Positions 1-8,027 of a stretch of 8,027 bases of DNA are shown here, piece after piece (positions within the stretch are counted from its first letter, which is position 1; each line of letters begins with the position of its first letter). Below the pieces are notes generated by a model. That model ran no database searches. It had not been told where the DNA came from and saw only the letters and a program-made list of their open reading frames with translations. A program made the position numbers and the translations under genes. Source of the DNA: Pseudomonadota bacterium (GTDB lineage: Bacteria; Pseudomonadota; Gammaproteobacteria; Burkholderiales; Burkholderiaceae_D); contig JAEWBA010000368.1 of assembly GCA_023391395.1 (NCBI GenBank), positions 1 to 8,027 on the forward strand, read 5' to 3'.

Positions 1-714
1 ATGCACACCACCGAACTGGATCCCGCCTTGTCGCAAACCCTGGAGGCCGCCGGCAAGGCCGGAATGAAACTCGTCATCGCCAACAAGAATTATTCATCTT
101 GGTCCATGCGGCCCTGGGTGGTGATGAAAGCCTTCGACCTCGCTTTCGAGGAAGTGCGCATTCCCTTGCGGCAGCCGGACACGGGAGCGCGCATCGCCCA
201 ATATTCCGCTTCCGGCCGCGTCCCGGTGCTGGTCGATGGCTCCACCGTCGTTTGGGATTCGCTCGCAATTTGTGAATACCTGGCCGAACAATTTCCCGAT
301 CACGCCTTGTGGCCGCGCGAATCGCGCGCGCGGGCGGTGGCGCGTTCCATCTGTGCCGAAATGCATGCAGGCTTCACCGGCTTGCGCTCCGCGATGTGGA
401 TGAATATTCGCGCCCGCTTCCCCGGCAAGGGACGTACGCCCGAGGCTCAGGGCGATATCGGGCGCATCTGCGAAATCTGGGAAGAGTGCCTGACGCGGTC
501 CGGTCCGCATGGCTTCCTGTTCGGCGACTTCTCGATTGCCGACGCCTATTTCGCGCCGGTGGTGATGCGCTTTCGTACTTACGAAGTCGCGCTTGCGCCG
601 GCTCTGCATGCCTTCATGGAACGCATCGTGGAGCATCCGGCGGTGGCGCAATGGATGCGGGAAGCATTGGCCGAAACCGAGCGGATTGAGCATTACGATG
701 TCTACCCTGATTGA
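1..714 (+). CDS. Glutathione S-transferase family protein
   Basis: Cytosolic glutathione S-transferase-like protein of 237 aa if read from the ATG at base 1. The thioredoxin-like N-terminal domain begins at about residue 22 (KLVIANKNYSSWSMRPW) with the Ser-rich segment where GSTs of this type place the catalytic Ser. It continues through the cis-Pro region GRVPVLVDG and the glutathione-binding DSLAICEYL motif (about residues 85-93). The all-helical C-terminal domain follows, with FSIADAYFAPVV as the usual helix-6 N-capping/hydrophobic-staple motif. The ATG at base 64 is a serious alternative start: it sits exactly at the start of the fold and has AAGG five bases upstream, giving 216 aa, close to the usual GST length. 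The substrate cannot be told from sequence; family members conjugate or reduce electrophiles with glutathione, or act as isomerases. It lies 18 bases before cca and may be co-transcribed with it. Sure of the family, unsure of the start and function. Confidence 0.88.
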   Translation: MHTTELDPALSQTLEAAGKAGMKLVIANKNYSSWSMRPWVVMKAFDLAFEEVRIPLRQPDTGARIAQYSASGRVPVLVDGSTVVWDSLAICEYLAEQFPDHALWPRESRARAVARSICAEMHAGFTGLRSAMWMNIRARFPGKGRTPEAQGDIGRICEIWEECLTRSGPHGFLFGDFSIADAYFAPVVMRFRTYEVALAPALHAFMERIVEHPAVAQWMREALAETERIEHYDVYPD

Positions 715-732
715 AGCCGCTTTGCGTTAAAC

Positions 733-1956
733 ATGAAGACTTACGTTGTCGGCGGCGCAGTGCGCGATGAGCTGCTCGGCCTCCCGGTGCAGGACCATGA
801 CCACGTGGTGGTCGGCGCCACGCCCGAGCAAATGGTGGCGCTGGGCTTCACACCGGTGGGCAAGGATTTTCCGGTGTTCCTGCATCCCCGCACCCACGAG
901 GAATACGCGCTGGCGCGCACCGAGCGCAAGACCGCGCCCGGCTACAAGGGATTCGTCTTTCACGCCGACACCGACGTCACCTTGGAACAGGACCTGGTGC
1001 GGCGCGATCTGACCATCAATGCGCTGGCCAAGGCCGAGGATGGCAGCATCATCGATCCCTTTGGCGGCCAGCGCGATCTGCGGGAGCGCATCTTTCGCCA
1101 CGTCTCTCCTGCGTTCGCGGAAGACCCGGTGCGCATCCTGCGCGTAGCACGCTTTGCGGCACGCTTCGCCGACTTCCGCGTGGCGCCGGAAACCATGGAA
1201 CTGATGCGCCGGATGGTCGAAAACGGCGAAGTCGATGCGCTCGTGCCCGAGCGCGTCTGGCAGGAACTGGCGCGCGGTTTGATGGAAGTCACGCCTTCGC
1301 GCATGTTTGCCGTATTGCGTGAGTGCGGCGCGCTGGCGCGCATCCTGCCCGAGCTCGACGCATTGTGGGGCGTGCCCCAGCCGCAACAGCATCATCCCGA
1401 AGTGGACACCGGCGCGCATGTGATGATGGTGATCGATTACGCGGCTCGCCAGGGATATAACCTGCCGATCCGCTGCGCGGCACTGATGCACGACTTCGGA
1501 AAGGGCGCAACGCCACCTCAGGAGTGGCCGCGTCACCACGGACACGAAGCGCGCAGCGTGGCGCTGGTGGAACAGGCCTGCAAGCGCCTGAAGGCGCCCA
1601 ACGATTGCCGCGACCTTGCGCGCATGACTGCACGCGAACACGGCAACGTGGCGCGCGCGCTCGAACTGCGCCCCAATACCATAGTGAACCTGTTCGAGCG
1701 TTGCGACGCGTTCCGCAAGCCGCAGCGCTTCATCGACATGCTGCGTGCCTGCGAATGCGATCAGCGCGGCCGCGCCGGCTTCGAGGAGCGTCCCTTCCCG
1801 CAGGCCGATTACCTGGAAAATGCGCTGAATGCCGCGCGCGCTGTCGATGCCGGCAGCGTGGCCACCGCCCAGAGCGACCCGCGCCACATTCCCGATGCGG
1901 TGCACGCAGCGCGCGTGGCAGCTGTCAAGGCCGCTATTGCGCCCATCTATCCCTAA
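733..1956 (+). CDS. cca: Multifunctional CCA-adding enzyme (tRNA nucleotidyltransferase, HD type)
   Basis: Adds or repairs the 3'-terminal CCA of tRNAs in the cytoplasm, using CTP and ATP without a nucleic-acid template. The 407 aa compare with about 412 for E. coli Cca, and it looks collinear with it from end to end. Visible motifs: GGAVRD (residues 7-12) with the metal-binding D21 and D23 in QDHDHVVVG; EEYALARTER (56-65); RRDLTINALA (90-99); the nucleotide-selecting EDPVRILR block (130-137, motif EDxxR); PERVWQEL (172-179); and an HD phosphohydrolase domain with MHDFGKG (H253, D254) and RHHGHE (267-272). In E. coli the HD domain gives 2',3'-cyclic phosphodiesterase and phosphatase activities; the residues suggest the same here. 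The ATG at 733 aligns with the family N-terminus, but I see no good ribosome binding site before it, so translation may depend on coupling with the GST gene 18 bases upstream. No frameshift or missing key residue. Confidence 0.97.
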   Translation: MKTYVVGGAVRDELLGLPVQDHDHVVVGATPEQMVALGFTPVGKDFPVFLHPRTHEEYALARTERKTAPGYKGFVFHADTDVTLEQDLVRRDLTINALAKAEDGSIIDPFGGQRDLRERIFRHVSPAFAEDPVRILRVARFAARFADFRVAPETMELMRRMVENGEVDALVPERVWQELARGLMEVTPSRMFAVLRECGALARILPELDALWGVPQPQQHHPEVDTGAHVMMVIDYAARQGYNLPIRCAALMHDFGKGATPPQEWPRHHGHEARSVALVEQACKRLKAPNDCRDLARMTAREHGNVARALELRPNTIVNLFERCDAFRKPQRFIDMLRACECDQRGRAGFEERPFPQADYLENALNAARAVDAGSVATAQSDPRHIPDAVHAARVAAVKAAIAPIYP

Positions 1957-1961
1957 CTTGG

Positions 1962-1973
1962 GCGCTATAGCGC
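1962..1973. repeat. 12-bp perfect palindrome after cca
   Basis: GCGCTATAGCGC reads identically on both strands, starting 6 bases after the cca stop codon. No T run follows, so it is not a standard terminator by itself. It could be a small mRNA 3' hairpin, a protein binding site, or chance in GC-rich DNA. Confidence 0.4.
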
Positions 1974-2067
1974 GCATCGAGGCCTCTTCGTCTGGAAAAT
2001 AGGGGATTTTGTCCGCCAACTGACGCTTAAACGCGCTGAGTGGGAGGGGCGAGTTGCGTTTTCATTC

Positions 2068-2098
2068 GCGTGGTATGCAGGCCACGCCCAAAATTTTT
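2068..2098 (+). terminator. Possible rho-independent terminator of cca
   Basis: A 6-bp stem, GCGTGG (2068-2073) with CCACGC (2082-2087), encloses an 8-base loop. A run of five T follows at 2094-2098, and TCTTC beyond it is also pyrimidine-rich. The six-base gap CCAAAA between stem and T run, and the short stem, make this weak. It lies in the right place to separate cca from the operon downstream. Confidence 0.35.
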
Positions 2099-2112
2099 CT
2101 TCAAAGAATCAG

Positions 2113-2140
2113 TTGCCCATAATGCAATTTGCGCTACCAT
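2113..2140 (+). promoter_or_regulatory. Candidate sigma70-like promoter of the ThDP operon
   Basis: TTGCCC (2113-2118) and TACCAT (2135-2140) each match four of six bases of the -35 and -10 consensus and are 16 bases apart. Transcription would begin near 2147, leaving a leader of roughly 90 bases. A perfect TTGACA also occurs at 2151-2156, but nothing resembling a good -10 box lies at the proper distance, so it would need an activator. This is pattern matching only. Confidence 0.35.
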
Positions 2141-2153
2141 TGCTTGCAAATTG
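2125..2153. promoter_or_regulatory. Operator-like inverted repeat CAATTTGC-N13-GCAAATTG
   Basis: Two perfect 8-bp inverted arms (2125-2132 and 2146-2153) are separated by 13 bases. Their centres are 21 bp apart, two turns of B-DNA, as expected for a dimeric regulator. The dyad covers the -10 region of the candidate promoter and touches the TTGACA at 2151. A repressor site is the simplest reading. No regulator gene is in the window, so the binding protein is unknown. Confidence 0.45.
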
Positions 2154-2176
2154 ACAACATGGCGGCTGTGACAGAT

Positions 2177-2196
2177 CGCCGGCCCGGGCGCCGGCG
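2177..2196 (+). promoter_or_regulatory. GC-rich hairpin in the leader of the ThDP enzyme gene
   Basis: CGCCGGC (2177-2183) pairs with GCCGGCG (2190-2196), forming a 7-bp all-GC stem around a 6-base loop; a T-G wobble could add one pair. It ends about 24 bases before the ribosome binding site of the ThDP gene. No T run follows, so it is not a terminator. It could affect mRNA stability or translation, or be an incidental product of GC-rich DNA. Confidence 0.35.
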
Positions 2197-2219
2197 GCAT
2201 GTCGGAAGCGCTGCCCTTT

Positions 2220-2223
2220 GAGG
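2220..2223 (+). promoter_or_regulatory. Ribosome binding site deciding the ATG 2236 start
   Basis: GAGG (GAGGA to 2224) ends 12 bases before the ATG at 2236, a slightly long but workable spacing. A TTG at 2218 is in the same frame but overlaps this site and has no better site upstream, so the ATG is preferred. Confidence 0.5.
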
Positions 2224-2235
2224 AAAAACGCCCCC

Positions 2236-4098
2236 ATGCTCGCCAATACGCCAGTCGCACACGAAGACTCAATATGGCAGGACAGCAAACCGGGCCGGCA
2301 TATCGAGCCGCTGGCAACGAGTGCAGATCTGCTGGTCCAGTACCTGGAACAGATTGGCGTGGAATATGTGTTCGGCGTACCGGGCGGCGCCATCGAACCC
2401 TTGTATGACGCCATTGCGAGGAGCAGCCGCCGTGGCGGCGTCCGGCACATACTGGCGCGCCACGAGGCCGGTGCGGCATTCATGGCCGACGGCTACGCCC
2501 GCGAATCCGGCCGTATCGGCGTGTGCTGCTCGACCTCCGGCCCCGGCGCCACCAATCTGATCACCGGCGTCGCCTGCGCCTACGACAACAACATCCCTCT
2601 GCTCGTCATTACCGGCCAGCCCGCCTTGCCGGCTTTCGGCAAGCATCCGCTGCAGGAGTCGGCCTGCACCGGCGTCAATGTGCTGGGCATGTTCCGCCAC
2701 TGTACCGTCTACAACTCGCTGGTCTCGCATCCCAAGCAGCTCGAAACCAAGCTAGTCGCTGCACTTCAGAAAGCCACGCGCTCGCCCCGCGGACCGGCCC
2801 ATCTCAGCGTGCCGCTCGACGTGTTCCGTAGTCCAAGCGCAACGGCACCGTCGTACGATTTGCGCAGTCTGCTGATGCCTTCCTCGCTGGTGGACGATGA
2901 CGCGGTCGAGGCCCTGCGCGGGCTCCTAGAGCGGGCGCAACACGTGGTGCTCCTAATCGGCAACCTGTGCGGCGAAGCGATGGGGTCCATCTTGCAATTT
3001 GCGGCAACGCATGGAGCGACGTTGGTCACCACCCCGGACGGCAAGGGACTGGTCAATCCGGAGCATCCCCTGTTTCGCGGAGTGTTCGGCTTCGGCGGCC
3101 ACGCGGCGGCCGAAGCGGCGTTGCGCGATCCGTCGGTGGACCTGATATTGGCTGTCGGCGCCGGCATGGGGGAGTGGAACAGCGGTGGCTGGAGCGACAG
3201 CCTGCTCAACGAGCGCCTAGTGCACATCGACGAGTCGGAGGATCACCTGGCGCGCACGCCCATGGCGCGCCTGCACGTGCGTGGACGCATTGTATCCGTC
3301 TTCAACCGGCTGCTCGATCGTGCGCAGCGCGACCAGGCCAACGCAGGCGCCGAGCTGGATGGGCTGCGCACTTTGCAAGGCATAGAGCAATCCGTTGCCG
3401 ATCCCGAGCGTCTGCTGGCCGCGCCGGAAAAATACGCAAGCGATGCCACTCCCATCAAGCCGCAACGACTGATGCGCGAGCTGGGGCGCCTGTTCCCGCC
3501 GACGACGCGCTTTCTGGCCGATACCGGCAACAGCGCTTCCTGGGCCGTGCATTACCTGCATCCGCAGGATAGGCGCAAGGCCGAAAGGCGGTTCGGCGGC
3601 GGCAGCCGCAAGCGCGAGGCGGGAAGACGCAAGAGTGACGGCGGCTGGCTGCGCGTGGTCATGAATTTTGCGCCCATGGGTTGGGCCATCGGCGGTGCCG
3701 TCGGTACGGCGGCCGCCAATCCGGATATGCCCGTGGTGTGCATCACCGGCGATGGCAGCCTCTTGATGAATGGCCAGGAGATTTCCGTCGCCGTCGCGCA
3801 GCGCCTGACAGTCGTATTCGTGGTCCTGAATGACCGTGCCTTGGGCATGGTCAAGCATGGCCAGCGTCTCGCCCGAGCGGAACAGATCGGTTGCGATTTG
3901 CCGCCCACCGATTTCGCGGCCCTGGCGCGTGCCCTCGGTGCGGAGGCGCATACCATCGCTTCGCCCGAGGACCTGCAACGCTTAGACGTCGAGGCGATTT
4001 GCGCGCGAAACGGACCCACCTTGCTGGATGTGCTGATCGATCCGGAGGAGGTGCCTTTGATGGGGGTGCGCATGCGCGTGCTGGCCAGCCAGATGTGA
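2236..4098 (+). CDS. ThDP-dependent enzyme, acetolactate synthase (IlvB)-like
   Basis: Large ThDP enzyme of 620 aa in the acetohydroxyacid synthase (AHAS)/benzoylformate decarboxylase superfamily; such enzymes decarboxylate a 2-oxo acid and transfer the carbon fragment to an acceptor. The pyrimidine-binding domain (about 27-200) has FGVPGGAIEPLYDAI and the cofactor-activating Glu at RHE77. A central Rossmann-like domain covers about 215-365. The PP domain (about 410-610) has the metal/diphosphate motif GDG (505-507) ending at LND533. Aligned to E. coli AHAS II, the Trp in GMVRQW that selects the second substrate is Gly542 here (GMVKHG), and the metal-binding Asn is Asp533, which many ThDP enzymes tolerate. 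An Arg/Lys-rich insert lies at 446-466. No AHAS small subunit and no ilv genes are nearby; two citrate-synthase-like genes follow 25 bases downstream. It is unlikely to be the housekeeping AHAS. The real substrates are unknown; acyloin synthesis or 2-oxo acid decarboxylation are options. Confidence 0.88.
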   Translation: MLANTPVAHEDSIWQDSKPGRHIEPLATSADLLVQYLEQIGVEYVFGVPGGAIEPLYDAIARSSRRGGVRHILARHEAGAAFMADGYARESGRIGVCCSTSGPGATNLITGVACAYDNNIPLLVITGQPALPAFGKHPLQESACTGVNVLGMFRHCTVYNSLVSHPKQLETKLVAALQKATRSPRGPAHLSVPLDVFRSPSATAPSYDLRSLLMPSSLVDDDAVEALRGLLERAQHVVLLIGNLCGEAMGSILQFAATHGATLVTTPDGKGLVNPEHPLFRGVFGFGGHAAAEAALRDPSVDLILAVGAGMGEWNSGGWSDSLLNERLVHIDESEDHLARTPMARLHVRGRIVSVFNRLLDRAQRDQANAGAELDGLRTLQGIEQSVADPERLLAAPEKYASDATPIKPQRLMRELGRLFPPTTRFLADTGNSASWAVHYLHPQDRRKAERRFGGGSRKREAGRRKSDGGWLRVVMNFAPMGWAIGGAVGTAAANPDMPVVCITGDGSLLMNGQEISVAVAQRLTVVFVVLNDRALGMVKHGQRLARAEQIGCDLPPTDFAALARALGAEAHTIASPEDLQRLDVEAICARNGPTLLDVLIDPEEVPLMGVRMRVLASQM

Positions 4099-4112
4099 GC
4101 ATAAAACCAATC

Positions 4113-4117
4113 GGAAG
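4113..4117 (+). promoter_or_regulatory. Ribosome binding site of the first citrate-synthase-like gene
   Basis: GGAAG lies six bases before the ATG at 4124, inside the 25-base gap after the ThDP gene. It is a moderate site and supports this ATG as the start, with translation continuing along one mRNA. Confidence 0.45.
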
Positions 4118-4123
4118 CACCAC

Positions 4124-4930
4124 ATGAGCAAACAAGACAAGCCGCATACGATTCGCAGCAATATCTGGAACGAGGAGGCCGAACCCGATAATCCCTTCAC
4201 CGCCCGTGCCGCCTACTGCCGCGGCTATGACGTCTACGGCGAGATGATCGGGCAGGCGCGCTGGGTCGAAATGCTTTACCTGCTGTTCCACGAGGAAGCC
4301 CCGACGGCACAGCAGGCGGACATGCTGGAAGCACTCGCGGTCGCGCTCGCCAATCCCGGCCCGCGCGACGCTTCGGTGCATGCCGCGATGTGCGGCGGCG
4401 TGTGCGGCTCGACCGCCGCATCCTCGCTGATGGCCGCGCTGGCGGTCGGTGCCGGGCAACTGGCGGGCGGCCGTGAGGTCTTCCTGGCGATGGCAGCCTG
4501 GCAGGATTGCGGCACCGATGTCGGCGCCTGGCAGCGTTGGATGACCCAAGACATGAGGGCTCCCGGCAGCATCTGGCCGACGCCCGAGCATGTTCCGGGC
4601 TTCGACCCGCATGGTGTCAGCACGGCCTTGCCGGTGAAGCAGCTTCTGGCCTGCCTGGCGCGGTTCGAGGTCGGACCGCGCCTGCCATGGCTGCAACGGA
4701 ATTATCCGGCCTTGCAAGACATGGCGAAGCATCCGCTGGCGCTGTCCGGCGTCGCCGCCGCCGCGCTGGCCGACCTCGACTTCACGCCCGAGCAGGGCGA
4801 AATGGTCCACCTGCTGTTGCGTCTGCCCGGTGCTGCAGCGCATGCAGTGGAGCAGCGTCCGCTCGGCTACAAGAAATTCCCCTTCGGGACAGTGGAACTG
4901 GAAGAGCCGCATAGCGGAGAGCCGGCATGA
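4124..4930 (+). CDS. Citrate synthase / citryl-CoA lyase-like protein, catalytic residues altered
   Basis: A 268-aa protein of the citrate synthase fold, near the length of citryl-CoA lyases (about 250-260 aa) and much shorter than citrate synthases (about 370-430 aa). The family pattern is clear at YCRGYDVYGEMIGQARWVEMLYLLFHEEAPTA (31-62) and in the small-residue helix pair GSTAASSLMAALAVGAGQLAGG (95-116). The usual active sites are not kept by hand alignment: GPLHGGAN of true citrate synthases reads GQLAGGRE here, placing Ala114 at the first catalytic His. The GxGHPVYK loop resembles GFDPHGVS (159-166), with a His shifted by one. The NVDFYSG Asp position appears to be Leu (HPLALSG, 203-209). 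It may bind acyl-CoA or a carboxylate as a non-catalytic or repurposed subunit, perhaps pairing with the next gene product, whose start overlaps its stop by 4 bases. GC content is very high (about 75% near 4400). Family assignment fairly sure; function unknown. Confidence 0.75.
   Translation: MSKQDKPHTIRSNIWNEEAEPDNPFTARAAYCRGYDVYGEMIGQARWVEMLYLLFHEEAPTAQQADMLEALAVALANPGPRDASVHAAMCGGVCGSTAASSLMAALAVGAGQLAGGREVFLAMAAWQDCGTDVGAWQRWMTQDMRAPGSIWPTPEHVPGFDPHGVSTALPVKQLLACLARFEVGPRLPWLQRNYPALQDMAKHPLALSGVAAAALADLDFTPEQGEMVHLLLRLPGAAAHAVEQRPLGYKKFPFGTVELEEPHSGEPA
4916..4921 (+). promoter_or_regulatory. Ribosome binding site inside the preceding gene
   Basis: GGAGAG ends five bases before the ATG at 4927, near-ideal spacing. 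With the ATGA stop/start overlap (4927-4930) it fixes the start of the second citrate-synthase-like gene and indicates translational coupling, as expected for subunits made in equal amounts. Confidence 0.65.
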
Positions 4931-5754
4931 GCGCCCCGAACAAGGGTCCGGACTTCCTGATGCAAAACGTCGGCGTCCTCAAGAGCCGCATGGGTACCTT
5001 CTTCCCCGGCAGCCACGTGATCTTCCGTGGTCACGACCTGCATCGCGAGCTCAAGGACATGGACTGGATGGAGCTGTATGTGTTCGGCATCACCGGACGC
5101 CGTTTCACACCACAGCAATTGCGCCTGATGCATGCGATCTGGACCTACACCAGTTATCCGGATGTACGCCTGTGGAACAACCGGGTGGCGGCGCTGGCCG
5201 GGAGTTCGCGCAGCACGGGAGCACTGGGCGTGGCTGCGGCGCTCGCGGTGTCGGAGGCGGCTATTTACGGCGGCGGAATTTTTGCTCGTGCCATCCATTT
5301 CCTCATCTGTACAAGAGAGCGCATTGAAAATGGCGTTGCCTTGGTCGATTGCTTGCGCGAAGAATTCGAGCAGCACCGCAGCATCGGCGGTTACGGTCGT
5401 CCGCTCATTAACGGTGATGAACGTATTCGGCCGATGCTGGACCTGGCCCGTCAATTGGGCTTGGACGAGGGGCCGCACCTTCGGTTGGCGTTCGCCATTG
5501 AGAAAGAGCTGCTCAAGGGCCGGTGGCGCATGAAAATGAATTACGCCGCTTTAGTAGCGGCTTTGGGGGCCGATATCGGATTGACGCAGAAAGAGTGTTC
5601 GCTTTTTATTTTTCCGGTATTCCTGGCGGGCATGCAGCCCTGCTTCATTGAAGCATCGGAAAACTCCGAAGGCAGCTTGTATGCGTTGTCGTGCCGCGAT
5701 ATCGAGTACGGCGGCCCGGCGCACCGTACTTGGCGCGGTGTAAAGACACAATAA
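4927..5754 (+). CDS. Second citrate synthase-like protein, divergent
   Basis: A 275-aa protein, a distant partner of the preceding one. The N-terminal part has the FRGHDLHRELKDMDWMELYVFGITGRRFTPQQ pattern (33-64) seen before the large helical domain of citrate synthases. Then YPDVRLWNNRVAALAGSSRSTGALGVAAALA (77-107) matches the citrate synthase segment that usually reads SxNASTFxARVxAST. The catalytic positions differ: the LHGGAN loop is IYGGGI (Tyr114 for His), the GFGHPxY loop is GYGRPL (Arg158 for His), and no Asp occupies the NVDFYSG-like position near MNYAAL (204-209). The C-terminal Arg-containing end GPAHRTWRG (263-271) resembles the family tail that contacts the carboxylate/CoA. I infer a heteromeric, possibly non-canonical, acyl-CoA or carboxylate-binding partner of the 268-aa protein. 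From about codon 115 onward GC content falls to about 50% and codon use shifts, unlike the first third. A weak family match, so function is open. Confidence 0.65.
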   Translation: MSAPNKGPDFLMQNVGVLKSRMGTFFPGSHVIFRGHDLHRELKDMDWMELYVFGITGRRFTPQQLRLMHAIWTYTSYPDVRLWNNRVAALAGSSRSTGALGVAAALAVSEAAIYGGGIFARAIHFLICTRERIENGVALVDCLREEFEQHRSIGGYGRPLINGDERIRPMLDLARQLGLDEGPHLRLAFAIEKELLKGRWRMKMNYAALVAALGADIGLTQKECSLFIFPVFLAGMQPCFIEASENSEGSLYALSCRDIEYGGPAHRTWRGVKTQ

Positions 5755-5766
5755 GGACGATCGGTA

Positions 5767-5781
5767 ATGAGCGACGCTCAT
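5767..5781. promoter_or_regulatory. 15-bp dyad ATGAGCG-A-CGCTCAT between genes
   Basis: Perfect 7-bp inverted arms (5767-5773 and 5775-5781) around a single base lie in the 66-base gap before the receptor gene. As DNA this is operator-like; as RNA it could form a small hairpin with five or six pairs. No T run follows, so termination is unlikely. It may adjust receptor expression relative to the upstream genes. Confidence 0.4.
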
Positions 5782-5809
5782 CCATTGCCGAATCACTAAA
5801 ACAGTAATA

Positions 5810-5815
5810 GGGAGA
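5810..5815 (+). promoter_or_regulatory. Ribosome binding site of the receptor gene
   Basis: GGGAGA ends five bases before the ATG at 5821, a strong, well-spaced site. It supports this start over the in-frame ATG at 5851, which would shorten the signal peptide n-region. Confidence 0.65.
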
Positions 5816-5820
5816 ACTCG

Positions 5821-7938
5821 ATGCGGCGTCCGTACCGATTGCGGGTTCACATGCTTACGGCATGCATGGCTCTTGCATGGCTTGGCTGCGCGTCGGCACA
5901 AACATCGGAGGAAGAAGAGCTTGCGCTCTCTTATGGCGACAAGTCCTTCGTCAGCATCGCAACCGGTAGCCAACAGGCCATCGCCCGGGCACCTGCAGTT
6001 GCGACCGTGATTACCGCCAAGGAGATCGAGGCGATGGGAGCGATCGATCTAGACGATGTCTTGAAGAGCGTGCCGGGTTTGCATGTCTCATTCTCGTCTC
6101 TCGCTTCGCATCCGATTTACAGTTTTCGCGGCATCTTCACAAGCTACAACCCGCAAGTGCTCATGCTGGTCAATGGACTGCCGATTACCAATGTGTTTGT
6201 CGGGGACCGGGGATTGGCTTGGGGCGGCATGCCGCTTGAGAATGTGGCGCGTATCGAGGTGATCCGCGGACCGGGGTCCGCATTGTATGGCGCCGACGCG
6301 TTCTCCGGTGTCATCAACATCATTACGAAGACTGCGGCCGACATCAAGGGCACCGAGTATGGTATTCGGGTGGGCAGCTTCAATACCCGCGACGCCTGGA
6401 TACAGCACGGAGGCAACCTTGGACCACTGGAAGCGGCTTTCTTTCTCCGCGTCGGCCATACTGACGGCCAGAAGGGAGTGATTCAGGAGGATCTCCAGTC
6501 CTTGCTGGACAGGCAATTCGGCACCAGGGCCTCGCTGACCCCGGGAAGAATCAACGCAGTTCGGAACGCCTTGGACGCACGAGCTGACCTGTCCTATCAG
6601 GATTGGCGCTTTCGAGCCGGGTATCAGCAGCGACAGGTCGGCATCGGCGCAGGACTTGCTGAAAGTCTCGACCCCCATAGCCGTGCGCCGGAATCGCGCT
6701 TGTATCTCGATTTGAGCTACCGAAATGCCAACTTTGCGCGAAACTGGGAAGTGGCCGGAGAAGTAGGTTACTACGACATCAAGCAGAGACCCGGTAGCCC
6801 CGCATACATGCTTTTTCCTCCTGGTGCATTCGGTGGCGCATTTCCTAGCGGCGTGATCGGCAATCCCGGTCATTCTGAGCGTCATTCGCATGCCAGTCTG
6901 TCAGCCTATTACACAGGCTTCGATCGTCACCGTTTGCGTATCGGCACGGGTTTCCGGGTGGAGGATTTGTATGAGGCACCGGAGACGAAAAACTACAATA
7001 TCGTCACCGTGCCCGGAGTGGGGCCGGTATTCGTTCCCCTGGGCGGGTTGGTGGATGCTACCGGCAATCCTGCACTGGTCTACATGCAGCCGCACAAGCG
7101 ACATCTGAGTTATGTCTTTGCCCAGGACGAATGGAATTTCGCCAAGGACTGGACCTTGACTGCCGGCGTGCGCCATGACCGCTATTCCGATTTCGGCGGC
7201 ACCACCAATCCGCGTCTGGCATTGGTGTGGGATGCCGCCTACAACGTCGTGGTGAAGGCCATGCATGGCCGGGCCTTCCGGGCACCGTCCTTTGCCGAGC
7301 AATACAACATCAACAATCCGGTTTCGACGGGCAACCCCAATCTGCGTCCGGAAACCATCGTCACGGACGAGTTGGCCGTGTCCTGGCAGGCGGCCTCGAA
7401 TCTGCACACCACGCTCAGCCTATTCCGCTATCGCATGCGCGACATCATCCGCTTTGTGCCGAATGCCGATCCCACCACCGGGTCCACCGCGCAAAACGCC
7501 GGCGACCAGACCGGGCGCGGACTGGAATTCGAGGCGACTTGGGATGCCTCGCGCACCTTGCGCTTGACCGGCAGCCTGTCGCTGCAGCGCTCCATCGACG
7601 AGCTGACTCAGCAGGATGCCGGGCTGGCACCGCACAAGCGCATCTTCCTGCGCGGCGATTGGCGCTTTGCGCCCTTCTGGCAGCTTGGCGCCACAGTCAA
7701 CCATGTCGCCGATCGCAAACGCCAACCGGGAGATCCGAGGCCGCCGATCGCCGATTACACGACGGTCGATTTGAGCCTGCGGCGCGAAAAGATCGCCGGC
7801 AACTGGGATTTCCGCGCGATCGTGCTCAATCTCTTCGATCGCGACGCGCGCGAACCGAGTTTCGCGCCGGGCAATATTCCCTTCGATTTGCCGTTGCCGG
7901 GCCGGGCTTTCTATGTCCAGCTGCAGCACAGCTTCTGA
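5821..7938 (+). CDS. TonB-dependent outer-membrane receptor
   Basis: A 705-aa outer-membrane active-transport receptor energised by TonB-ExbB-ExbD. Residues 1-26 form a signal peptide (basic MRRPYRLR, hydrophobic core, cleavage likely at ASA26-Q27). A TonB-box-like stretch FVSIATG is at 43-49, so there is no N-terminal signalling (STN) domain of the FecA/FpvA type. The plug domain (about 52-170) has the standard motifs VPGLHV (84-89), SFRGI (101-105), QVLMLVNGLPI (112-122), IEVIRGPGSALYGADAFSGVINIITK (145-170). The 22-strand barrel follows and includes the typical RAFRAPSFAEQYN and NPNLRPETIVTDE segments. It ends in Phe (LQHSF), the usual C-terminal signal for outer-membrane assembly. The ligand (metal chelate, cobalamin, carboxylate or other) cannot be read from sequence. 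It starts 66 bases after the second citrate-synthase-like gene, and a gene for a probable exported protein starts 21 bases after its stop, so it may be in either operon or both. The first half is lower in GC than the last third. Confidence 0.94.
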   Translation: MRRPYRLRVHMLTACMALAWLGCASAQTSEEEELALSYGDKSFVSIATGSQQAIARAPAVATVITAKEIEAMGAIDLDDVLKSVPGLHVSFSSLASHPIYSFRGIFTSYNPQVLMLVNGLPITNVFVGDRGLAWGGMPLENVARIEVIRGPGSALYGADAFSGVINIITKTAADIKGTEYGIRVGSFNTRDAWIQHGGNLGPLEAAFFLRVGHTDGQKGVIQEDLQSLLDRQFGTRASLTPGRINAVRNALDARADLSYQDWRFRAGYQQRQVGIGAGLAESLDPHSRAPESRLYLDLSYRNANFARNWEVAGEVGYYDIKQRPGSPAYMLFPPGAFGGAFPSGVIGNPGHSERHSHASLSAYYTGFDRHRLRIGTGFRVEDLYEAPETKNYNIVTVPGVGPVFVPLGGLVDATGNPALVYMQPHKRHLSYVFAQDEWNFAKDWTLTAGVRHDRYSDFGGTTNPRLALVWDAAYNVVVKAMHGRAFRAPSFAEQYNINNPVSTGNPNLRPETIVTDELAVSWQAASNLHTTLSLFRYRMRDIIRFVPNADPTTGSTAQNAGDQTGRGLEFEATWDASRTLRLTGSLSLQRSIDELTQQDAGLAPHKRIFLRGDWRFAPFWQLGATVNHVADRKRQPGDPRPPIADYTTVDLSLRREKIAGNWDFRAIVLNLFDRDAREPSFAPGNIPFDLPLPGRAFYVQLQHSF

Positions 7939-7948
7939 CCGGAGGCGC

Positions 7949-7953
7949 AAGGA
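7949..7953 (+). promoter_or_regulatory. Ribosome binding site of the truncated last gene
   Basis: AAGGA ends six bases before the GTG at 7960; a further GGAGG lies at 7941-7945. Together they make translation starting at this GTG likely. Confidence 0.5.
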
Positions 7954-7959
7954 TTCTCC

Positions 7960-8027
7960 GTGAGACTGCACGCGATATCACCGACTGCCGCCGCGCATCT
8001 CCTGCTGGGGTTCTGCCTGTTGACACT
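7960..8027 (+). CDS. Start of a probable exported protein, cut by the window end
   Basis: The frame opens with a GTG and stays open to the window edge, giving only 22 full codons. The visible peptide begins MRLHAISPTAAAH and continues with LLLGFCLLT: a short basic start followed by a hydrophobic stretch, consistent with a signal peptide or membrane anchor. It starts 21 bases after the receptor stop with a good ribosome binding site, so it is very likely co-transcribed with the receptor. Genes in this position after TonB-dependent receptors are often periplasmic binding proteins or membrane-anchored sensor proteins, but nothing here separates these choices. Confidence 0.55.
   Translation, partial: MRLHAISPTAAAHLLLGFCLLT

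What the first reader, a model, noticed from the sequence alone, without database searches (positions are those of the whole stretch)
2236..5754. ThDP enzyme plus two citrate-synthase-like proteins in one operon: a possible uncharacterised pathway
The three genes are tightly packed (25-base gap, then a 4-base overlap), and I do not recognise this combination as any standard pathway. It lacks an AHAS small subunit, ilv genes and TCA genes. A ThDP enzyme can produce an acyl or acyloin unit from a 2-oxo acid; citrate-synthase-like folds handle acyl-CoA and oxo-acid condensation or cleavage. Together they could make or break a branched hydroxy-acid, perhaps a citrate-like compound. The pathway itself is inference.
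Basis: partly seen in the sequence, partly recalled or inferred. Interest (0 to 1): 0.8.

Follow-up and report, generated by a model that had tools for sequence, protein, structure and literature searches.

The report
Make-and-sense operon with split citrate-synthase pair
In dozens of bacterial genomes a gene of the thiamine-enzyme family sits beside two almost always paired relatives of citrate synthase that lack its catalytic aspartate, usually with receptor and sensor genes close by, and together they likely make and sense a small molecule that is still unidentified.

Summary
In detail: three packed genes at 2236-5754, with a 25-base gap and then a 4-base overlap. They are the visible part of a larger conserved locus.

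The two citrate-synthase-like genes (CSa, CSb) are a near-obligate pair. In a sample of 369 genomes they occur together in 41 and CSb alone in 1; they are adjacent in 39 of 41. In a second phylum they are paired and adjacent in 4 of 4 positives among 218. Both are predicted to have the citryl-CoA-lyase fold, yet the catalytic Asp is absent from all 134 aligned members. In the main group CSa alone keeps one substrate arginine and CSb alone keeps the other.

The thiamine enzyme's closest solved relatives are BbmA and CsmA, not acetolactate synthases. A TonB-dependent receptor (in this window too), a PF04392-type binding protein and a histidine-kinase or GGDEF-EAL sensor usually lie nearby. One relative has a FabH-like enzyme in place of the pair; eight of 78 loci carry a sulfotransferase.

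Most likely reading (inferred): a pathway joining two 2-oxo acids and elaborating the product into a small molecule that the locus senses. Product, substrates and dimer are untested. The sensor set also occurs without these enzymes, so uptake and breakdown is a live rival. Ten paper searches found no description.

The parts
2236..4098 (+). ThDP-dependent-type enzyme, 620 aa, BbmA/CsmA-like; charged Arg-rich insert at about residues 444-470 before the C-terminal domain
   Evidence: Pfam TPP_enzyme N/M/C; profile of 40 module members scores BbmA 406.8, CsmA 353.2, E. coli AHAS I 297.9 bits; E77, D506, N532, D533 invariant in 40 of 40
4124..4930 (+). CSa: predicted citryl-CoA-lyase/citrate-synthase fold, without catalytic Asp; keeps the R401-equivalent (R233)
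4927..5754 (+). CSb: second predicted citryl-CoA-lyase fold, without catalytic Asp or His; keeps the R329-equivalent (R166)
5821..7938 (+). TonB-dependent outer-membrane receptor, 705 aa
   Evidence: Pfam barrel E 1.7e-43, plug E 1.2e-22; a receptor within 3.5 kb of CSa in 53 of 57 full-flank loci
7960..8027 (+). probable first codons (GTG) of the PF04392-type periplasmic binding protein, cut by the window end
   Evidence: signal-peptide-like reading directly behind the receptor, where relatives such as L007 carry this gene; too short to test

Best explanation
The window holds the enzyme genes and the outer-membrane receptor gene of a conserved locus that likely makes a small molecule and likely also senses it, and the citrate-synthase-like pair is predicted to form one heteromeric enzyme with a new active site. 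Shown: CSa and CSb nearly always occur together and next to each other and have lost the citrate-synthase Asp; the ThDP enzyme is nearest by sequence to BbmA and CsmA; receptor, binding-protein and sensor genes recur beside them. Inferred, step by step: (1) the ThDP enzyme decarboxylates one 2-oxo acid and adds the acyl anion to a second, giving a 2-acyl-2-hydroxy (alpha-hydroxy-beta-keto) acid; (2) the CSa-CSb heteromer, its two substrate arginines divided between the subunits, acylates or condenses that acid with an acyl-CoA, the job that the FabH-like enzyme CybF does after CybE in furanolide synthesis; (3) an SDR reductase, sulfotransferase, methyltransferase or amidotransferase tailors the product in some lineages; (4) the product leaves the cell, is taken back by the TonB-dependent receptor and bound by the PF04392-type protein, which signals to the adjacent histidine kinase or GGDEF-EAL protein.
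For: Pairing: both in 41 and CSb alone in 1 of 369 genomes, adjacent on one strand in 39 of 41; both and adjacent in 4 of 4 positives among 218 genomes of a second phylum. ThDP link: present in 40 of 42 CSb genomes and 8 of 327 without CSb; within 2.5 kb of CSa in 32 of 41. Sensing link: of 57 loci with full flanks, receptor within 3.5 kb in 53, PF04392-type protein within 10 kb in 43 by tblastn, kinase within 10 kb in 49, EAL within 11 kb in 41. The PF04392-type gene is directly followed by the sensor gene in 51 of 54 loci. In 8 of 8 genomes tested one of only 2-7 PF04392 genes lies within 10 kb of CSa (product of chance estimates about 1e-15; not a blind choice of genomes). Synthesis rather than breakdown: FabH-like gene between ThDP and receptor in L118, methyltransferase in L121; sulfotransferase in 8 and APS kinase in 9 of 78 loci; an Asn-synthase-like gene in L106 and an AMP-binding-ligase-like gene next to CSa in L107, one case each. 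CybE forms an alpha-hydroxy-beta-keto acid from two 2-oxo acids and CybF adds an acyl-CoA (passages of PMC12395478).
Against: The receptor, PF04392 protein and sensor also occur together without these enzymes: of 11 other PF04392 regions in the same 8 genomes (holding 12 of the 19 non-module matches), 5 have a receptor hit and 7 a kinase or EAL hit. So the receptor may recognise an outside compound that the enzymes degrade. The FabH-like replacement is a single case (1 of 369 genomes). Six of the 8 ThDP-without-CSb regions show no receptor or PF04392-type hit. I made no search for exporters; among the neighbour clusters the largest candidate (c7, an ABC ATPase by eye) is in 10 of 78 loci, often far from the pair. 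No PF04392-type gene was seen by tblastn in 14 of 57 full-flank loci; the 4 Geobacter-type ones among them have a diverged one (cluster c23; Pfam tested L017 only). In those loci the ThDP gene is only 33-36% identical (38% in the related L021) and on the other strand; the one tested, L017, scores best with acetolactate synthases, below cut-off. These sequences were not in the ThDP profile A5. No substrate, product, CoA binding or dimer was tested.
Confidence: 0.45

Rival explanations
1. Uptake and breakdown: the TonB receptor imports an outside compound, the PF04392-type protein and sensor report it, and the ThDP enzyme (as a lyase) and the CSa-CSb pair (as a retro-condensing enzyme) degrade it.
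For: Receptor, PF04392 and sensor genes also occur together without these enzymes in the same genomes; ThDP relatives include lyases such as benzaldehyde lyase and 2-hydroxyacyl-CoA lyase; SDR genes fit either direction.
Against: The ThDP enzyme is nearest to BbmA and CsmA, CybE homologues by a passage of PMC12395478 (it names CsmA and writes BpmA); sulfotransferase, APS kinase, methyltransferase and FabH-like genes point to synthesis.
Confidence: 0.27
2. A metallophore system: the enzymes make a hydroxy-acid chelator and the TonB receptor takes up the metal complex, the sensor adjusting expression.
For: The receptor is a general TonB type with sub-threshold heme and siderophore model hits; several hosts are Gallionella, Sideroxydans or Geobacter, iron-cycling genera (recalled); 2-hydroxy acids bind Fe(III) (recalled).
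Against: The binding-protein gene is followed by a sensor gene in 51 of 54 loci, not by a transporter permease. Metal-responsive sites were not searched for.
Confidence: 0.13
3. CSa and CSb are not enzymes but a binding or scaffold heteromer that delivers or stores the ThDP product or regulates the ThDP enzyme.
For: The Asp is lost in 134 of 134 and the His residues mostly; in L118 and L121 the ThDP, receptor, binding-protein and kinase genes occur without them.
Against: Many near-invariant polar residues remain (for example R81, R233, H240, E243 in CSa; R95, R158, D164, E165, R166, D216 in CSb), which suggests a working site.
Confidence: 0.12
4. Ordinary metabolism: acetolactate synthase with citryl-CoA lyases, as databases label them.
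For: Source names such as citryl-CoA lyase and citrate synthase; fold matches.
Against: Curated cut-offs not met, catalytic Asp absent; one host genome that carries the pair (N. malthae) has a separate citryl-CoA lyase with all five residues examined (L079).
Confidence: 0.03

Closest known systems
CybE/CybF furanolide (cyanobacterin-type) pathway
   Same: A ThDP enzyme joins two 2-oxo acids to an alpha-hydroxy-beta-keto acid, then an acyl-CoA-using condensing enzyme acts (passages of PMC12395478, and PMC13288894); relative L118 pairs the ThDP gene with a FabH-like gene as CybE is paired with CybF.
   Different: In the window the second enzyme would be a citrate-synthase-fold pair, not a FabH fold; no CoA-ligase or ammonia-lyase gene among the six scanned; receptor and sensor genes attached; product unknown.
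BbmA and CsmA (solved CybE homologues)
   Same: Closest solved chains to the window enzyme and to the profile of 40 module members.
   Different: The module enzymes carry an extra charged insert and an invariant Asp (D533) where BbmA and CsmA have the second Asn of the NN pair (alignments). The structure paper was not held; I saw only its citation and a one-sentence mention in PMC12395478.
Citryl-CoA lyase / citrate synthase (6hxp; PRK06224 family)
   Same: Predicted fold and length; distant profile similarity for both.
   Different: Catalytic Asp absent, His mostly absent, substrate Arg residues divided between two subunits in the main group; below the curated cut-off of every model hit.
LuxP-LuxQ and CqsA/LqsA alpha-hydroxyketone signalling (recalled, no call)
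   Same: Periplasmic binding protein signalling to a hybrid kinase; acyloin-type signal.
   Different: Different enzyme families, a TonB receptor, and often a GGDEF-EAL output; signalling is inferred here.

Membership tests
Acetolactate synthase large subunit | Pfam ThDP three-domain architecture | tested here: met
   PF02776, PF00205, PF02775 above cut-off
Acetolactate synthase large subunit | Passes the curated model TIGR00118 | tested here: not met
   299.1 bits against 538.35
Acetolactate synthase large subunit | Small regulatory subunit gene beside it | tested here: not met
   None of the six window genes scanned is one
CybE/BbmA/CsmA-type ThDP enzyme | Closest characterised relative by sequence | tested here: met
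   Among solved structures BbmA ranks first and CsmA next, for single sequence and profile
CybE/BbmA/CsmA-type ThDP enzyme | Forms alpha-hydroxy-beta-keto acids from two 2-oxo acids | not testable with these tools
   Needs an assay
Citryl-CoA lyase / citrate synthase | Fold | tested here: met
Citryl-CoA lyase / citrate synthase | Catalytic Asp (pig Asp375; numbering recalled) | tested here: not met
   0 of 55 CSa, 0 of 56 CSb, 0 of 23 divergent members
Citryl-CoA lyase / citrate synthase | Catalytic His (pig His274 and His320; numbering recalled) | tested here: not met
   His274: 4 of 55 CSa, 0 of 56 CSb, 8 of 11 divergent CSa, 0 of 12 divergent CSb; window CSa and CSb have Leu and Ile. His320: 0 of 134 at the column, though 45 of 55 CSa have a His within 3 columns
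Citryl-CoA lyase / citrate synthase | Curated NCBIfam cut-off | tested here: not met
   51.9 against 212 and 44.0 against 245 bits
Furanolide pathway | FabH-like furanolide synthase beside the ThDP gene | tested here: not met
   None among the window genes; a FabH-like gene is there in one relative, L118
Small-molecule signalling system | Synthesis genes linked to receptor and sensor genes | tested here: inconclusive
   Genes recur together, but synthesis is inferred and receptor, binding-protein and sensor genes also occur together without them
Small-molecule signalling system | Product released and sensed by its maker | not testable with these tools
   Needs metabolite and reporter work

The most novel reading that the evidence does not exclude
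An undescribed class of bacterial chemical signalling: an acyloin-type ThDP synthase and a heterodimeric citrate-synthase-fold enzyme, which has given up the Asp-His-His chemistry and divides its substrate arginines between two subunits, build a small (sometimes sulfated) signal that the same locus recaptures through a TonB receptor and reads through a PF04392-type binding protein and a kinase or c-di-GMP sensor.
Probability: 0.33. Interest if true: 0.87.

Novelty: new variant of a known kind. Interest (0 to 1): 0.68.

Why it matters
If right, a fold known for one of the best-studied reactions in metabolism has been turned, as a pair of unlike subunits, to a new reaction in a widespread locus of soil, sediment and water bacteria (Massilia and Rugamonas relatives, Gallionella, Methylomonas, Dechloromonas, Geobacter; names). 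It would give these groups a testable candidate for a self-made signal linked to kinase or c-di-GMP control, found through genes that databases now label citryl-CoA lyase or citrate synthase.

Tried and rejected
Ordinary citryl-CoA lyase or acetolactate synthase: rejected on curated cut-offs and catalytic residues. Anti-phage defence: no PADLOC hit for four window proteins. Riboswitch or other Rfam RNA in the window: none at gathering score. Promoter and terminator scan of 1900-8027: fewer sites than shuffles give. The first genome-contig scan with the single window CSa found no relative; the alignment A1 then gave 78 loci. More cases of the FabH-like replacement: none besides L118 in 369 genomes at E 1e-60, and the family of that genome held only itself. 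Family of the methyltransferase-bearing relative: no module-type ThDP in the 3 other genomes. Literature: ten searches listed no paper that I recognised as describing this gene set; I saw listings and abstract starts only, apart from passages of PMC12395478, PMC8777810 and PMC13288894. The library lacks most subscription journals, so absence is weak evidence.

Counting notes: the 57 full-flank loci are those of the 78 with at least 9.5 kb on both sides; the other 21 were left out. Alignments A3, A4 and A5 used 55, 56 and 40 of the 76 CSa, 75 CSb and 72 ThDP sequences (each count includes the window), picked by me for diversity; A5 leaves out the four Geobacter-type ThDP sequences. In the genome searches only a limited number of first-look candidates per genome was scored (at most 6, 7 and 3; 11), so those counts are lower bounds. 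Of the 19 PF04392 matches outside module loci in 8 genomes I fetched regions holding 12. The 8 genomes come from loci whose neighbourhoods I had already seen, so the 1e-15 estimate is not blind. Gene clusters rest on my own ORF calling and BLAST clustering; Pfam was run on representatives only.
Full report
Observation. The first is a full three-domain ThDP-family protein. The second has a weak Citrate_synt hit and the third none, but NCBIfam citryl-CoA lyase models detect both below cut-off. The next gene, 5821-7938, is a TonB-dependent receptor, and the last 68 bases read as the possible start of a secreted protein. The two genes upstream (GST-like; PolyA_pol/HD, that is CCA-adding-like) are shared with Noviherbaspirillum loci L059, L061 and L067 and are not part of the set.

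Recurrence. A scan of the species-genome collection with alignment A1 gave 78 loci, by their titles in beta- and gammaproteobacteria and Geobacter-type bacteria. CSb starts directly downstream of CSa in 73 of the 74 loci whose contig reaches that far. A ThDP gene lies upstream on the same strand within 3 kb in 66 of 72; the exceptions are four Geobacter-type loci with a diverged ThDP gene on the other strand, L008 with duplicated CSa-CSb genes in between, and L029 with none. Of 57 loci with at least 9.5 kb on both sides: ThDP 57 (the Geobacter-type ones included), CSb 56, TonB receptor within 3.5 kb 53, PF04392-type binding protein 43 by tblastn, histidine kinase 49 (both within 10 kb), EAL 41 within 11 kb. 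The four Geobacter-type loci carry a diverged binding protein that tblastn missed (cluster c23; PF04392 by Pfam in L017; also listed for G005, the genome of L030).

Independent sample. To avoid counting only loci found through CSa, I searched genomes drawn evenly from the class that holds the Noviherbaspirillum malthae genome. CSb is in 42 of 369 and CSa in 41 of 369, both at E 1e-20; all 41 are among the 42. They are neighbours on one strand in 39 of 41, the exceptions being a rearranged genome (G144) and a pair on different contigs (G205). In the phylum of Pelotalea chapellei both are in the same 4 of 218 genomes at E 1e-15, adjacent in all 4. A module-type ThDP gene (E 1e-100) is in 40 of the 42 CSb genomes and in 8 of the 327 without CSb. 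Of the 15 regions I fetched for a divergent branch (14 genomes; CSa and CSb 25-36% identical to the window's), 14 have a receptor hit, 10 a PF04392-type hit, 14 a kinase or EAL hit and 7 a ThDP hit, in changed order.

The ThDP enzyme. The profile of 40 members scores BbmA 406.8 and CsmA 353.2 bits, ahead of E. coli acetolactate synthase I at 297.9. PMC12395478 calls CsmA and a partner (written BpmA there) CybE homologues and describes CybE-type products as alpha-hydroxy-beta-keto acids (passages). The catalytic Glu (E77) and the GDG motif (D506) are invariant (roles recalled).

What replaces or joins the pair. Eight genomes have the ThDP gene without CSb. In L118 the gene between ThDP and receptor is FabH-like, in L121 a methyltransferase, both followed by receptor, PF04392-type protein (28-31% identity by tblastn) and kinase. 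The other six regions show no receptor or PF04392-type hit, though five of them have a kinase or EAL hit, and some end at a contig edge. CybF, described as a 3-oxoacyl-ACP-synthase (passage of PMC8777810), is the enzyme that follows CybE in furanolide synthesis. L118 is one case only. A sulfotransferase is in 8 of 78 loci and APS kinase in 9 of 78; an SDR gene sits directly upstream of CSa in 24 of 78, not in the window. L106 has an Asn-synthase-like gene beside CSb, and L107 an AMP-binding-ligase-like gene beside CSa.

Sensing side. The PF04392-type gene is followed directly by the sensor gene in 51 of 54 loci. Sensors tested range from HAMP-PAS-GGDEF-EAL (L002) to cache-kinase-receiver-Hpt-GGDEF-EAL (L041), and kinase-receiver forms in L017. 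Eight of eight genomes have a PF04392 gene within 10 kb of CSa although each has only 2-7. Against a private signal: other PF04392 genes in these genomes also sit near TonB receptors (5 of 11 regions) and kinases or EAL proteins (7 of 11). The sensing genes therefore look like a general set that here is tied to enzymes.

Verdict. The co-inheritance, the loss of catalytic residues and the gene company are shown. That the locus makes a molecule and senses it is the best-supported inference (0.45), with uptake and breakdown the main rival (0.27). No paper on this gene set turned up in ten searches of an open-access library (listed under Tried and rejected).

Noticed in passing
window 1-1956 and L059, L061, L067: The GST-CCA gene pair upstream is shared with Noviherbaspirillum (74-78% identity), but the window's CSa is closer to Gallionella-type ones (up to 77%) than to those three (56-58%), as if two module versions occupy one chromosomal site.
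   Followed up: partly
L116 and L117 (G144), L032: In G144 CSb is split, its first part beside CSa and the rest about 517 kb away; in L032 CSa matches only to residue 221 and no CSb follows. The module looks broken there.
   Followed up: no
L008 5546-12656: A Rhodocyclales locus with ThDP-SDR followed by two CSa-CSb sets and a third CSb in a row, and no receptor hit nearby.
   Followed up: no
L132, L133, L137, L138, L139: Other PF04392 genes near TonB receptors, some also near kinases or EAL proteins: a general receptor, binding-protein and sensor set that may deserve its own study.
   Followed up: partly
window 3565-3645 (ThDP residues 444-470) and relatives: A charged, Arg-rich loop that varies in length and sequence among the module ThDP enzymes printed sits before the C-terminal domain; the BbmA and CsmA alignments have a gap there.
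   Followed up: no
L052 6447-7658 and the same cluster in L050: An HD-GYP/DUF3391-type protein (cluster c13; Pfam tested in L052 only) lies upstream of the ThDP gene, possibly another c-di-GMP-related neighbour.
   Followed up: no
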